Source: Acridotheres tristis (taxonomy: Eukaryota; Chordata; Aves; Passeriformes; Sturnidae). Taken from it: DNA of 64,000 nucleotides. The stretch lies in contig CM072884.1 in the NCBI GenBank assembly GCA_037013685.1, forward strand, positions 113,943,730 through 114,007,729, read 5' to 3'. Below are positions 54,022-63,584 of the stretch, piece after piece. The position numbers and the translations under genes were made by a program. The notes below the pieces were generated by a model. It did not search any database. It worked only from the letters and a program-made list of their open reading frames with translations, and was not told the origin of the DNA. Every line of letters begins with the position of its first letter. Position 1 is the stretch's first letter.

Positions 54022-54166
54022 ATGGCTGAGCGCGTGCTGGTGATCGGCAGTGGAGGCAGGGAGCACGCCCTGGCCTGGAAGTTGGCTCAGTCCCCACATG
54101 TCAAACACGTGTTTGTGGCTCCAGGAAATGCAGGGACAGCCGACAATGGAAAAATCTCCAATTCAG
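54022..54166 (+). CDS. GART-like exon 1 (start)
   Basis: 48 codons plus one base. [20 protein letters not shown] is close to GART. Start context is GCC-ATG-G, and a CCCCAG acceptor-like site lies four bases before the ATG, so a non-coding exon upstream is possible. Donor GTAAAT. Confidence 0.85.
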
Positions 54167-57100
54167 GTAAATCCGACCCAAAAATCTCCAATCCGAGCCA
54201 TCAGCACTGTAGCAACTGAGACAAAGCTACTGGGGAGGTTACAACGACCAGTAACTCCAGTTGTTTGTCTTGTGCTTGTGCCACAAATGGTTGAAGGCCC
54301 AGATTTCTTTTTTATTCTGTGTTTTGTTTCTGAATGTCAGAGCTGCCTCCTCAAACACCCTGCTGTATATATTTTTTTTGCCTTGCTGTTTAAGCTAGTG
54401 AGGTTTATATGTGTTCCTGTATTCCCACACCTCATCTCTTCCACTCTGGTGCTTGAATTCAGTGACCAATTCCAGCGAAACTTAACCCAGGAACAGAAGG
54501 CTCCAAGTTCTTAATTCTGAATAGAAACATCTCTGGGTCTGCCCAGGCTGCTCAGCAAAATTTAGCTGCATCATCCAATGCTTTGAATAAACCTTTTCTC
54601 AACTGTTAAAATGGAACCTTTCGTTTTATTTTTCAAAGTTGCTACTGTTGTGAAAAGCAGCTTTGGAAAATATATCATGATTACACATGGCAAATAAAAT
54701 AGATTTAATCAGTTAGCAGATGTGTATTAAAAACAGGGGTGCAAATTGGAGTTGTTCCCAGCTCCTTTTGGACTCTGCTATTATTACATTGATATTTCAC
54801 TTTGCCCTTCGTGGGCTGTTTCATTATTTTAATCACACTTTTAGGGAGATAGAAAAAAGACATTCTCATCTCCTGTCTCTTATTTAGCCTTTCCAGTCAT
54901 CAGTTGATTATTTTTCCTTTTCAGCTGTATTAGTGAGCAATCACACCATTGTTATCCAGTTCTGCAAAGATCATAACATTGGGCTGGTGTTAGTTGGCCC
55001 AGAAGCTCTTTTGGCAGCAGGTAAGTTAATAAGCAAGTTAGTTTTTAAGTAAGTAAGTTAATAAACAAGTTAGAAGTTATTTTCTTCTAGCTTGACAGAA
55101 AAAACATAGAAATGATATTATAATATAATAAATGAACATATTAGAATCATATCAAATTGTATAATTAGGTGAGCAGAAAAAATCAGCACCTTGAATTCTG
55201 CTTTCAAATGGGGGTAACTATGAGAGTGCTTAGTAAAGTACAGAGCTGAAGAGCCTTAAAAACACAGGCTGAGCTGGGTCAGTGGATATCCAGAACCTCA
55301 TTTTGAGGGTGAAGGAATCACCCGAGACAAAGGCAAGTGTAACAAAAGCCCGATGGGAATTTCCTTTAGTCACGCCAAGGAGTCCCCTCGGTGCTTGTGC
55401 TGTTTGTGTTCCTGTGCTCAGGGATTGTGGATGACCTGAGGGCAGCAGGAGTTCGGTGCTTTGGGCCCTGTGCCAGGGCAGCCCAGCTGGCATCCAGCAG
55501 CAGCTCCAGCAAAGCCTTCCTGGAGAGGCACGGGATGCCCACGGCGCGCTGGAGAGCCTTCAGCGACCCGCAGGAAGCCTGCAGGTTCATCACCAGGTAA
55601 CTGTGCTGCCATGGGCTCCTCTGAGAGTCACCTGTGCCTGGGCCCTTCGCTGGGGGCCCCTCAGCTCTTGTTCCTCTGCAGAGGTGCTAATTAACGAGCT
55701 CTGCAATTACAGAGCCGTGATGAAGGTGTGGAGATGCTGGAGCCAGGCTGGGACACCTGGGGGTGCTCACCTGGAGAGGAGAAGCTGCAGGGAGAGCTCA
55801 GAGCCCCTGGCAGGGCCTGAAGGGGCTCCAGGAGAGCTGGAGAGGGACTGGGGACAAGGATGGAGGGACAGCACACAGGGAATGGCTTCAAAGCAGGATT
55901 TGATGGGATTTTGGGAATTAGGAATTGTTCCCTGGCAGGGTGGGCAGGGCTGGCACAGGGTGCCCAGAGCAGCTGTGGCTGCCCCTGGACAGTGGAAGGT
56001 GGAATTTTAGCTTTTAGTAGGCTAACACCAGGGAAAAGAAGAATAGAAGAAAAAAAGGAAAATAAAAGCAATGGGTTGAGAAATAGGGAGATCAGTGGGG
56101 TGGAAGTTTTCTGTAAGAAACCCTTCCCTGGCAGGGTGGGCAGGGCTGGCACAGGGTGCCCAGATTTGCTGTGGCTGCCCCTGGATCCCTGGAATGTTCA
56201 GTTCCAGGTTGGACATTGGGACAGTGGGAGGTGTCCCTGCCATGGCAGGGGTGGCTCTGGGGGGGATTTGGGGTCCTTCCAACCCTTTTGTGACTCCACA
56301 ATTCTGAGGACTGCAGCAGGTTGATTTTTCTGTTCTCAGGTTCCAAGCTCTTCTTCTTTTCCATCTGCTCCTTCAAAATGCTCCATAAGCCATTTATAAG
56401 ACAAAAAATTGTAATGGAGGAAAAAATTTCAACAAATCTTTCTGTTAGTTAAGGACTAAGAATCATTTCTACCCAGAGAGATACCAGCAAAATGCTCTCT
56501 GAGGATGATTTGGAAGGTTCTGGTCAAATATCCATAATTAGAGGAGATCAGTCTCATTGCTTTGCCTGTGGCCTCTGTTCCCAGCCTCCTTGTCCTTGCT
56601 GGCAAGTGCTCCATGTGGGACAAACTTGTGGAACCTGTGGGGTTTTTTTAATAAAAGCAATGTTTTCGTTAGTTTTGCTCTGTAAGAACACCCAGTTTAT
56701 GTTGCTGCCACCCAGAGGTGAGGCCAGCACCTTCTCTGTCACCAAGGGCAAGGCTCCAAAACTGTCCCAGGGGTGCACAGCAAGAATGGGAGCCTGGTGG
56801 GAGCCTGTGTGGAACAAACTGGGCTGAGGTTTAACCTTCTAGAAATCATAGTGTGGCAAGGAGAGTGAGGGGTTCTTTCAGGAAACAGGAAATTTGTGCT
56901 CAAAATTCAAAAATCATTTTATTTGTGTGATGAATGTGATTCGTGCTAATTAAATTGTAACTAGATTAGGAAAACTGTACTAATAGCAAAAGAAAAGAGT
57001 TGTTAAGAAGCAAAAAAAGAAAAAAGAAATGAGTGAGAAGAAGCTGATGGGATTTTCCAGATGTTAGAAGGGAGTAGTAGAAGGGTGTAGGTTTGATAAG

Positions 57101-63100: not shown

Positions 63101-63584
63101 AAGGTAACTTAACATTTTGGCTCATCCTTAAAGGCTTTAAGTTAAAACATTGTTTCTCTGATTTTGTTTTTTTTGATAGAAGCAGAATGGGAGGGGCCTA
63201 AATTCATGTTCCTTCTACATAAGCTCACACGTTGTGTTTCTAAATTTTGGACTGGTGCCAAAAGATGCTGCAAATTAAATGCCCACTCAGCTTTGCCAAA
63301 CCTACTGGCTTGGCACATACAGATTTTATTCCATCACCTGAATTTTCCCTAAGGTGAATTTCAGCAAGCCAGCAAAATAAACATGAACTTCCACCACTGT
63401 GAAAACTTTCTACAGGTAATTCTCCCTCTGCTTAAAAATGATTTTTATGAAGTGATTCAAGCAGCAATTGATGGCAAACTCTGCAGCTGCATGCCAGCCT
63501 GGTCAGAGAACAGAACTGCTGTGTGTGTGGTCATGGCCAGCCCAGGATACCCAGGAGACTCTGACAAAGGCATGGAGGTAACAG
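54022..63584 (+). CDS. GART-like gene: diverged GARS-domain paralogue (nine exons, 3' end outside window)
   Basis: GART joins three purine-synthesis enzymes; its N-terminal GARS domain ligates phosphoribosylamine to glycine with ATP. Exons: 54022-54166, 54925-55020, 55422-55596, 57367-57478, 57963-58022, 61049-61174, 61589-61676, 62912-62997, 63416-63584. Together they give 352 codons plus one base, with all GT/AG sites intact and no stop or frameshift. The N-terminal fold is retained (GSGGREHA 9-16, PGNAGT 34-39, GPE 73-75). The catalytic ATP-grasp part is not: the usual VVKASGLAAGKGV loop reads [13 protein letters not shown] (146-158), GPNTGGMGA reads GPPTAGMGA (225-233 region), and LEFNCRFGDPE reads [11 protein letters not shown] (284-294), losing both metal ligands. 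Exon 5 also lacks three codons. I infer a catalytically inactive paralogue rather than the housekeeping GART. AIRS and GART-transformylase domains, if any, lie to the right. Confidence 0.82.
54925..55020 (+). CDS. GART-like exon 2
   Basis: Encodes [19 protein letters not shown] and [12 protein letters not shown]. Acceptor TTTTCAG, donor GTAAGT, both strong. Confidence 0.88.
55422..55596 (+). CDS. GART-like exon 3
   Basis: Encodes [15 protein letters not shown], then a run of six Ser ([17 protein letters not shown]) where GART has an ESSK-type helix of equal length, then [17 protein letters not shown]. Donor GTAACT. Confidence 0.88.
55735..56305 (+). mobile_element. Two CR1 LINE 3' fragments in GART-like intron 3
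   Basis: The first (about 55735-55995) includes one unexpanded copy of the 22-base segment (GGATGGAGGGACAGCACACA). The second (about 56115-56305) ends TGACTCCACAATTCTGAGG. Confidence 0.82.
57367..57478 (+). CDS. GART-like exon 4 (altered ATP loop)
   Basis: Encodes [19 protein letters not shown], then [14 protein letters not shown]. The second half is well conserved, while the Gly-rich nucleotide loop in the first half is rewritten. Acceptor TTACAG, donor GTGCAC. Confidence 0.85.
57963..58022 (+). CDS. GART-like exon 5 (three codons shorter)
   Basis: 20 codons, [24 protein letters not shown] has about three more residues after the FG. Acceptor TTGCAG, donor GTATGT. Confidence 0.82.
58570..58705 (+). 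mobile_element. CR1 LINE 3' fragment in GART-like intron 5
   Basis: GCCCCTGGCACAGGGTGCCC, GGCAGTGCCCAAGGCCAGGT, GGTGTCCCTGCCATGGCAGG. Confidence 0.8.
58706..58804 (-). repeat. Inverted repeat, left arm
   Basis: Reverse complement of 59624-59723 with few mismatches. On the minus strand it contains CACAATAAATACCCATTT and GTGTGCAGCCTCTGTTCC, the look of an LTR R/U5 end (AATAAA followed by a short tail). Confidence 0.85.
59007..59542 (-). mobile_element. Solo LTR, family A copy 3
   Basis: 536 bp, the same family as 7082 and 48732, lying in GART-like intron 5. Flanks are ATCAC at 59002-59006 and 59543-59547, so this copy appears to have a 5-base rather than 4-base duplication. Confidence 0.88.
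59624..59723 (+). repeat. Inverted repeat, right arm
   Basis: Pairs with 58706-58804; carries AATAAA at about 59664-59669. Confidence 0.85.
60480..61030. repeat. CTGTCCCC minisatellite at an exon border
   Basis: Nine- to twelve-base units CTGTCCCCC/CTGTCCCCA/CTGTCCCCG, with a degenerate TTGTCACCATTGCCAC region before it (60310-60480). It ends about 18 bases before GART-like exon 6. The base unit is like that at 36630-37365. Confidence 0.95.
61049..61174 (+). CDS. GART-like exon 6
   Basis: 42 codons: [34 protein letters not shown] and SPVRQ. It abuts a CTGTCCCC minisatellite that forms its polypyrimidine tract. Donor GTACGG. Confidence 0.88.
61239..61244 (+). promoter_or_regulatory. Possible intronic poly(A) signal
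   Basis: AATAAA, 65 bases past the exon 6 donor. If intron 6 is retained, the reading frame of exon 6 continues 21 codons and stops at a TAA that overlaps this signal (TAATAAA). Confidence 0.35.
61335..61470. repeat. A-rich simple sequence
   Basis: AAAAGAAA and AAATAAAAT-type words in GART-like intron 6. Confidence 0.85.
61589..61676 (+). CDS. GART-like exon 7
   Basis: Encodes [19 protein letters not shown] and [10 protein letters not shown]. Acceptor TTCAG, donor GTGAGT. Confidence 0.85.
62375..62855. repeat. 15-bp and 10-bp minisatellite, AAAGGAAAGTTCAGG
   Basis: Alternating AAAGGAAAGTTCAGG and AAAGTTCAGG units in GART-like intron 7, ending in an AAAGG pentanucleotide run (62811-62855) just before exon 8. 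Confidence 0.96.
62912..62997 (+). CDS. GART-like exon 8 (altered metal-binding signature)
   Basis: Encodes [18 protein letters not shown] and [10 protein letters not shown]. Changes N285, K287, Q289 and Q294 break the GARS signature. Acceptor TCCAG, donor GTGAGT. Confidence 0.88.
63416..63584 (+). CDS. GART-like exon 9
   Basis: Encodes [39 protein letters not shown] and KGMEVT. Well conserved with GART. Acceptor TACAG, donor GTAACT. The next exon is outside the window. Confidence 0.88.

What the first reader, a model, noticed from the sequence alone, without database searches (positions are those of the whole stretch)
54022..63584. A GART-like pseudoenzyme: GARS fold kept, active site rewritten
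Nine exons totalling 352 codons are open with canonical splice sites, so the gene looks maintained. Yet three separate catalytic elements of the ATP-grasp GARS domain are changed: the Gly-rich nucleotide loop (R148, R150, P152, R155, T156, E157), the GPNTGGMG segment (now GPPTAGMG) and the metal-binding signature (N285, K287, Q289, Q294 in [11 protein letters not shown]). Changes cluster at catalytic residues while surrounding helices stay GART-like. That pattern suggests a new non-enzymatic or regulatory role instead of simple decay. GART itself sits several genes away from RCAN1-CLIC6 in human chr21, so this should be a separate lineage-specific copy.
Basis: partly seen in the sequence, partly recalled or inferred. 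Interest (0 to 1): 0.88.

Follow-up and report, generated by a model that had tools for sequence, protein, structure and literature searches.

The report
Dead GART copy in birds, reptiles
This bird gene is the front part of an old second copy of GART, a three-step purine-making enzyme; birds, crocodilians, turtles, lizards and snakes carry the copy although key catalytic residues are lost in all three of its enzyme domains, so it probably does a non-enzymatic job in animals that excrete nitrogen as uric acid.

Summary
In detail: nine GT-AG exons (54022-63584, 352 codons) encode a GARS domain with a rewritten nucleotide loop and metal site. The translation is 352/352 identical to NCBI's 'LOW QUALITY ... 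adenosine-3-like' protein of the common myna (992 aa), so the window holds about its first third. It looks like a pseudoenzyme, but not a lineage-specific copy: it belongs to one well-supported clade of GART paralogs found in birds, crocodilians, turtles, lizards and snakes, and in no fish, amphibian or mammal row examined. Full-length paralogs keep three domains, and each has lost catalytic residues: GARS loop Gly>Arg and metal Glu>Asn/Ser, AIRS Asp65>Lys, GARTfase His108 and Asp144. The GARS fold is predicted intact, and its sequence is nearly as conserved among non-passerine birds (95%) as in canonical GART (97%). Canonical GART appears linked to it in four genomes. Most likely it is a non-catalytic partner or regulator in purine synthesis; that step is inferred. 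Its range matches uricotely. Myna GARS evolves faster and the record is flagged, so decay in this species stays open. No dN/dS, RNA or own-genome search was possible.

The parts
54022..54166 (+). exon 1 (start codon; GARS_N)
   Evidence: unique spliced solution, donor GTAAAT
54925..55020 (+). exon 2 (GARS_N)
   Evidence: acceptor TTTCAG, donor GTAAGT
55422..55596 (+). exon 3 (GARS_N end, start of GARS_A)
   Evidence: acceptor GCTCAG, donor GTAACT
57367..57478 (+). exon 4 (GARS_A, nucleotide loop)
   Evidence: acceptor TTACAG, donor GTGCAC
57392..57421 (+). codons 148-157: former Gly-rich ATP loop KASGLAAGKG, here [10 protein letters not shown]
   Evidence: read; residue check; clade comparison
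57963..58022 (+). exon 5 (EELLQGEE segment, kept)
   Evidence: acceptor TTGCAG, donor GTATGT
61049..61174 (+). exon 6 ([17 protein letters not shown])
   Evidence: acceptor CCGCAG, donor GTACGG
61130..61153 (+). codons 224-231: GPPTAGMG for canonical GPNTGGMG (passerine-type change)
   Evidence: read
61589..61676 (+). exon 7
   Evidence: acceptor GTTCAG, donor GTGAGT
62912..62997 (+). exon 8 (metal-site segment)
   Evidence: acceptor GTCCAG, donor GTGAGT
62962..62991 (+). codons 285-294: [10 protein letters not shown] for canonical EFNCRFGDPE (metal Glu and Asn replaced)
   Evidence: read
63416..63584 (+). exon 9 (start of GARS_C); the gene continues beyond the window
   Evidence: acceptor CTACAG, donor GTAACT at 63585; 992-aa protein P0177 is identical over 352/352

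Best explanation
The gene is the first part of an ancient GART paralog ('pseudo-GART') that arose by duplication of the trifunctional purine enzyme before the split of lepidosaurs and archelosaurs, lost key catalytic residues in all three domains early, and has been kept as a folded, probably non-catalytic protein. SHOWN: gene structure in the window; a single paralog clade; loss of key catalytic or nucleotide/metal residues in GARS, AIRS and GARTfase in each sauropsid group with data; all three domains still recognised by sequence models; GARS fold predicted intact; high protein conservation in non-passerine birds; canonical GART present alongside in four genomes. INFERRED: it works by binding, not catalysis. 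The most likely form is a prozyme-like partner that pairs with canonical GART (perhaps through the AIRS segment CVNDILAQGAEPLFFL, 11 of whose 16 positions are invariant in 97 paralog rows, and which I recall as lying partly at the PurM dimer face) or docks in the purinosome, adjusting flux in de novo purine synthesis, which in sauropsids is also the route of nitrogen disposal as uric acid. My confidence is about 0.9 that the GARS and AIRS activities are dead, about 0.75 that the gene is maintained for a function in most sauropsids, and about 0.3 for this particular mechanism.
For: Rows below are database rows, not species; several species have more than one row and the myna counts twice (window and P0177). 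One clade: 103 of 157 tree rows, support 100, again with IQ-TREE. GARS loop second Gly>Arg in 38/38 non-passerine birds with a letter, 48/49 passerines (1 Ser), 6/6 crocodilians, 6/6 turtles, 2/2 squamates and 5/5 further squamates. Metal Glu>Asn/Ser in all 103 (the sorting column, so no independent test), with neighbouring Asn>Lys in 95. AIRS Asp65>Lys in 38 of 39, 45 of 46, 4/4 and 6/6 rows with a letter and 4/4 squamates with a letter. GARTfase His108>Ser, Cys or Tyr in nearly all rows with a letter; Asp144>Ser, Asn, Gly and others. Catalytic roles of PurM Asp65/Asp94/His190/His247 and PurN His108/Asp144: PMC3261824, passages. GARS identity among non-passerine bird paralogs 95.1% (35 rows) against 97.0% among 6 canonical bird rows; 281 of 425 GARS columns fully invariant in 40 rows. 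Fold. Three domains. Range: of 67 rows new in the third search 8 have loop Arg, all crocodilian or squamate, and the 59 others keep both glycines and the metal Glu/Asn. Uricotely as a monophyletic sauropsid trait coupled to de novo purine synthesis: PMC10517255, passages. Precedent of an activating dead paralog: PMC5201418, abstract.
Against: No codon-level selection test, no transcript or protein data, no interaction data. AIRS and GARTfase are less constrained than in GART (88% and 91% against 97% and 98% in non-passerine birds); passerines diverge fast, and their GARTfase is as far from other birds (77.6%) as other birds are from crocodilians (78.3%). The myna protein is labelled LOW QUALITY, and its GARS has 23 derived changes against 5 in Rhabdornis. 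Residues that remain: the Asp of FGDP in every sorted paralog row; AIRS Asp94 in many rows, His190 in most, His247 in squamates; GARTfase Asn106 and His137 in most; metal Asn in 3 of 6 turtles. Enrichment of changes at active-site motifs is modest in birds for GARS and AIRS and absent for GARTfase, turtles and crocodilians. The link with uricotely is a coincidence of range; I recall that crocodilians and many aquatic turtles excrete much ammonia or urea, yet they keep the gene.
Confidence: 0.6

Rival explanations
1. A slowly decaying relic: activity was lost early and the gene is now dying, at least in the myna and in passerines; database proteins hide frameshifts.
For: LOW QUALITY label on the myna model; faster change in passerines and in myna GARS; many 'PUR2 protein, partial' rows come from gene builds that can bridge frameshifts (recalled).
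Against: GARS nearly as conserved as in canonical GART in non-passerine birds; full-length models in birds, crocodilians and turtles and long ones in squamates; of 34 paralog rows with an NCBI-type name 'trifunctional ... adenosine-3(-like)' (counted by eye in the capped lists) only the myna's is marked LOW QUALITY; the altered residues are themselves nearly fixed in birds; nine intact exons in the window.
Confidence: 0.15
2. A ligand sensor: the N domain and substrate side still bind phosphoribosylamine, GAR or glycine without ATP chemistry, and the protein signals or buffers the metabolite.
For: The segment [21 protein letters not shown] is kept in 39 rows, the printed ones all non-passerine birds, and much of the N domain is at least 90% conserved, while the ATP loop and metal site are changed. 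That this segment is on the substrate side is recalled. In human cells purine nucleotides glue PPAT to NUDT5, which acts independently of its hydrolase activity (PMC13421311, abstract and one section).
Against: The same segment is changed in squamates, crocodilians, most turtle rows and passerines, so binding is not conserved clade-wide.
Confidence: 0.15
3. A new enzyme: the Arg-rich loop and Lys at the old metal site support a different reaction or substrate.
For: The replacements are nearly fixed across birds (loop R/R/P/R/E; metal segment N/K/Q/Q; AIRS K) rather than random.
Against: Loop and metal ligands are changed together with key residues of the two other domains; squamates and turtles carry different letters at several of these sites.
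Confidence: 0.07
4. A recent lineage-specific copy, or canonical GART itself misread.
For: None found.
Against: Trees and taxon range; only 67.6% identity to a canonical bird GART.
Confidence: 0.01

Closest known systems
GART, trifunctional purine biosynthetic protein adenosine-3 (vertebrates)
   Same: Same three domains in the same order and similar length; GARS fold by prediction; apparently linked in four genomes.
   Different: Key residues lost in GARS, AIRS and GARTfase; separate clade.
Trypanosome AdoMetDC prozyme (and the deoxyhypusine synthase dead paralog)
   Same: A catalytically dead paralog retained next to its active sister in a biosynthetic pathway (PMC5201418 abstract; PMC3663545 search listing).
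   Different: There activation by heteromer formation is shown; here no interaction is known, and three domains lost residues in one chain.
Sauropsid cysteine-rich uricase (co-opted Uox)
   Same: A purine-pathway gene repurposed in stem sauropsids around the transition to uricotely (PMC10517255 passages).
   Different: It is an orthologue described there as a redox-sensitive enzyme, not a dead paralog.
NUDT5 as regulator of PPAT
   Same: A protein that regulates de novo purine synthesis independently of its own catalysis (PMC13421311 abstract and one section).
   Different: Not a paralog of a pathway enzyme; shown in human cells.
Extra PurD-like proteins of haloarchaea (rrnAC0307, Hlac_1553)
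   Same: PurD-like proteins with a divergent P-loop and missing Mg sites, judged not to be GAR synthetases (PMC3261824 passages).
   Different: They lost the Asp of the GDPE motif, which the sauropsid paralogs keep; proteins of two species, not a conserved multidomain clade.

Membership tests
Active trifunctional GART | GARS, AIRS and GARTfase domains in one chain | tested here: met
   Pfam on myna, chicken, crocodile and turtle paralogs; NCBIfam purD and purM above cut-off in all four, purN below it in the myna (141.7 vs 150.1); the window itself holds only most of GARS
Active trifunctional GART | GARS ATP-loop glycines and metal Glu/Asn | tested here: not met
   the Asp of FGDP is kept
Active trifunctional GART | AIRS Asp65 and His247 (E. 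coli PurM numbering) | tested here: not met
   Asp65>Lys in nearly every row with a letter; His247 lost in archelosaurs, kept in squamates
Active trifunctional GART | GARTfase His108 and Asp144 | tested here: not met
Pseudoenzyme paralog | Fold kept, catalytic residues lost | tested here: met
   residues; fold by prediction for the GARS part of the Corvus orthologue only; full-length model failed
Pseudoenzyme paralog | No enzymatic activity | not testable with these tools
   inferred from residues only
Pseudoenzyme paralog | Maintained by purifying selection | tested here: inconclusive
   protein-level conservation only; no coding DNA of relatives for dN/dS
Prozyme-type activator | Active sister gene in the same genome | tested here: met
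   Manacus P0009/P0202, Zosterops P0260/P0179, Crotalus P0256/P0242, Crocodylus P0215/P0245; not tested in the myna
Prozyme-type activator | Heteromer with the active enzyme that changes its activity | not testable with these tools
   no interaction data; conservation of an AIRS segment is suggestive only (its place at the dimer face is recalled)
Pseudogene | Broken reading frame or splice sites | tested here: inconclusive
   not broken in the window; the rest of the myna gene was not seen, and its record is LOW QUALITY

The most novel reading that the evidence does not exclude
A triple-dead trifunctional GART was fixed in stem sauropsids as a dedicated regulator of de novo purine synthesis and was part of the switch to uricotely: by pairing with GART or seating in the purinosome it lets the liver run the pathway as a nitrogen sink, uncoupled from nucleotide demand.
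Probability: 0.13. Interest if true: 0.92.

Novelty: new variant of a known kind. Interest (0 to 1): 0.72.

Why it matters
Databases name the protein a trifunctional purine enzyme, and the domain models hit it, so it is silently counted as one. If the reading is right, a whole three-activity enzyme died in all its domains and was kept through much of amniote history in the clade that disposes of nitrogen through purine synthesis. That would be an unusually complete multidomain pseudoenzyme and a concrete, testable candidate for how sauropsids control purine flux. It also warns that GART counts, knockouts or antibodies in chicken may mix two genes.

Tried and rejected
Recent copy or misread canonical GART: rejected by tree and taxon range.

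Dating the duplication: IQ-TREE put the paralogs beside sauropsid GART with support 16 in one set and outside tetrapod GART with support 85 in another. AU tests reject neither a sauropsid-stem origin (p 0.385) nor an amniote-level one (p 0.488; 0.42), nor a later archelosaur placement (p 0.176; this conflicts with the squamate paralogs). One further test did not finish. So only 'before the lepidosaur-archelosaur split' is claimed.

Full-length AF2 of the myna protein failed (pLDDT 46.7, 53 rows); only the GARS model of the Corvus kubaryi orthologue is used.

Fisher tests of active-site clustering (12, one-sided, uncorrected): GARS birds OR 2.4 and 2.9, AIRS non-passerine birds 2.4 (p 0.027), the other nine not significant. 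The GARTfase rows are undercounted because that alignment placed a gap at Asp144.

In one search the second list was meant to use only columns conserved at 97%, but a slip in the script applied no threshold; it therefore counts differences from the passerine majority over up to 425 GARS columns (myna 31, Rhabdornis 14, median 21 of 48 rows). It is not used as conserved-site evidence. The first part of that call (23 against 5) is unaffected.

Rows dropped: one search used 167 of 238 fetched proteins plus the window protein; the 71 left out (P0048-P0120 except P0079 and P0091) are mostly prokaryotic or unnamed PurD rows, with a few vertebrate fragments. Eleven of the 168 rows could not be sorted or were short and are not in the counts. 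One search used the 35 non-passerine and 46 passerine paralogs over 900 aa, out of 40 and 49, and hand-picked canonical rows; the database is clustered at 90%, which biases those means. Search lists were capped at 120 rows each.

Literature: of ten searches, seven aimed at the paralog or at GART in birds and reptiles. None of the papers listed was about it; the lists show at most 20 of up to 702 hits. 'GART-like' gave 0 papers; 'adenosine-3-like' gave 2, on a coral trout and a moth. Only open-access papers are held; a paper on human GART structure was not.

dN/dS, transcripts and the rest of the myna gene could not be examined.

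
Full report
What is in the window. Exact spliced matching gives one gene model of nine exons on the + strand from 54022 to 63584, with GT-AG at all eight introns; the last exon ends in phase 1 before GTAACT. Its 352 codons encode GARS_N, GARS_A and the beginning of GARS_C and align end to end with human GAR synthetase 2qk4. The translation is identical over 352 of 352 residues to P0177, 'LOW QUALITY PROTEIN: trifunctional purine biosynthetic protein adenosine-3-like [Acridotheres t...]', 992 aa, so the window is most likely from the common myna, Acridotheres tristis (Sturnidae), and holds about the first third of the coding sequence. 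A CLIC gene, recognised by recalled motifs at 39181-42211, lies upstream on the same strand.

It is an old paralog, not a recent copy. A protein search returned relatives at 82-91% in most bird paralog rows (three fragmentary models 69-75%) and 72% in Alligator, against 66-71% for canonical bird GART rows. A search with a pheasant paralog returned paralogs of up to 1021 aa from birds, crocodilians and turtles; a third, with a monitor-lizard sequence, returned ones of 829-961 aa from python, tiger snake, cobra, rattlesnake and Anolis. In a FastTree of 157 rows (of 168 aligned; short fragments left out) the 103 rows with Asn or Ser at the GARS metal Glu form one side of a branch with support 100, the 54 others the opposite side. 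Two IQ-TREE runs with 41 and 42 rows agree (support 100), and inside the clade the order follows the species tree in outline. The place of the duplication is not resolved between sauropsid stem, amniote and tetrapod level; what is safe is that it precedes the split of squamates from turtles, crocodilians and birds. Of the 67 rows new in the third search, 8 have Arg for the loop Gly, all crocodilian or squamate; the other 59, among them sharks, bony fish, an amphibian, mammals and canonical bird and reptile genes, keep both loop glycines and the metal Glu/Asn.

Two genes in one genome. Manacus canonical P0009 and paralog P0202 are listed on contigs of identical length (495184); Zosterops canonical P0260 and paralog P0179 bear consecutive locus tags (HGM15179_016611, _016612) and equal contig length; Crotalus horridus paralog P0242 and canonical P0256 bear Chor_000454 and Chor_000458 on contigs of equal length; Crocodylus porosus canonical P0215 and paralog P0245 likewise share a contig length. 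Identity of the contigs is inferred from equal length. This suggests a local duplication. In the myna itself the canonical gene was not seen, because the genome search did not complete.

All three active sites. From PMC3261824 (passages): PurM Asp65, Asp94, His190 and His247 and PurN His108 and Asp144 are named as active-site or catalytic residues, and two PurD-like proteins were there judged inactive for lost Mg sites, a divergent P-loop and loss of the Asp in the GDPE motif. That Asp is kept in the sauropsid paralogs. Positions were mapped through PDB alignments. Counts are of rows with a letter, not of species; the myna counts twice among 49 passerine rows. GARS: second loop Gly>Arg 38/38 non-passerine birds, 48/49 passerines, 6/6 crocodilians, 6/6 turtles, 2/2 squamates; last loop Gly>Glu or Lys in all with a letter; first Lys>Arg in birds only; metal Glu>Asn or Ser in all 103 (the sorting column, so no independent test); metal Asn>Lys in all bird and crocodilian rows, 3 of 6 turtle rows keep Asn. 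AIRS: Asp65>Lys in 38 of 39 non-passerine birds (1 Asp), 45 of 46 passerines (1 Gln), 4/4 crocodilians, 6/6 turtles, and 4 of 4 squamate rows with a letter. His247 is lost in archelosaurs and kept in squamates; Asp94 and His190 are kept in many rows. GARTfase: His108>Ser in 34 of 37 non-passerine birds (3 Cys) and in 42 of 47 passerines (the rest Cys, Arg, Asn, one His and one not printed); Tyr in 5/5 crocodilians; Cys in the 4 turtle rows and Tyr in the 3 squamate rows with this part. Asp144 is Asn in turtles, Ser in crocodilians and squamates, and Ser, Cys, Gly or others in the bird rows shown (read by eye, since the main alignment placed a gap there). Asn106 and His137 are mostly kept. The canonical rows show these losses only in odd single rows.

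Is the scaffold kept? Pfam recognises all domains in myna, chicken, crocodile and turtle paralogs; NCBIfam purD and purM pass their cut-offs, and purN falls just below in the myna (141.7 against 150.1). An AF2 model of the Corvus kubaryi orthologue (361 aa, 91% identical to the window protein), built with 111 sequences, has mean pLDDT 88.5 and matches human GARS best (2qk4, TM 0.90, 1.6 A). The full-length myna model failed (pLDDT 46.7), so AIRS and GARTfase folds rest on sequence alone.

Is it maintained? Mean identity among non-passerine bird paralogs is 95.1% for GARS, 88.0% for AIRS, 91.2% for GARTfase, against 97.0, 97.1 and 97.6% for six canonical bird rows (the 90% clustering of the database biases this). 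Of 425 GARS columns 281 are fully invariant in the 40 non-passerine rows. Of 147 GARS columns invariant in canonical GART, 123 are unchanged, 17 fixed to another residue and 7 variable in those birds. I judge this to be more constraint than drift would leave, but it is protein-level evidence only. Passerine paralogs are faster: bird-passerine identity 86.2/76.7/77.6% against 90.2/91.0/90.6% for the canonical gene. Against Rhabdornis (P0160, the nearest other row), the myna has 23 derived GARS changes to 5, but 12 to 13 in AIRS and 9 to 7 in GARTfase (sign test about 0.001 for GARS, by hand). With the LOW QUALITY label this leaves relaxed constraint or incipient loss in the myna open. Clustering of changes at active-site motifs is modest.

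How it most likely works. Shown: an old, folded-looking GART paralog with crippled active sites, kept beside GART. Inferred: action by binding. In the AIRS segment CVNDILAQGAEPLFFL 11 of 16 positions are invariant in 97 paralog rows while Asp65 is Lys; I recall that part of this segment lies at the PurM dimer face, so pairing with canonical GART is the simplest route, as with the trypanosome prozymes (PMC5201418 abstract; PMC3663545 listing). Human GART was found in complexes with PAICS (PMC9035706 passages), so docking in the purinosome is a variant. The range coincides with uricotely, described as a monophyletic trait of sauropsids coupled to de novo purine synthesis, and with the co-option of uricase before the lepidosaur-archelosaur split (PMC10517255 passages). 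That coincidence is a lead, not evidence of function.

Known or new. The genes are in databases under an enzyme's name. None of the papers listed by seven searches of the held open-access library (capped lists) was about the paralog. Dead paralogs are a known kind; a trifunctional one with all three domains crippled, kept across sauropsids, is to my knowledge an undescribed variant.

Noticed in passing
window 60481-61022 and 62387-62848: Two minisatellites lie in introns 5 and 7 of the gene: a 9-bp unit (TGTCCCCCC, about 60 copies, 86% match) and a 15-bp unit (AGGAAAGTTCAGGAA, about 32 copies, 84% match).
   Followed up: no
window 58698-58807 and 59621-59730: A 110-bp inverted repeat, 95% complementary with 813 bases between the arms, sits in intron 5; it may be a mobile-element insertion.
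   Followed up: partly
window 17725-22086, +: A 1453-aa stop-free stretch whose later part is a long acidic repeat ending in a run of Glu and HDISLFVK; it looks like the N-terminal extension of CLIC6 (recalled); no Pfam match.
   Followed up: partly
window 47315-49665, +: Open stretches, one with SQWED-like acidic repeats, lie between the CLIC gene and the GART paralog; no Pfam family reaches its cut-off in the three stretches tried. Identity unknown.
   Followed up: partly
proteins P0031 and P0042 (Amphiprion ocellaris): A clownfish 'adenosine-3-like' GARS has Asp instead of Glu at the metal site and sits with fish GART; possibly a separate fish copy.
   Followed up: no
P0001 (Corvus kubaryi) and window 63585-63613: The NCBI model ends 9 residues after exon 9, apparently by reading into the intron; the window has a similar in-frame stop at 63611-63613. 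Either a truncated model or a short intron-retained form.
   Followed up: no
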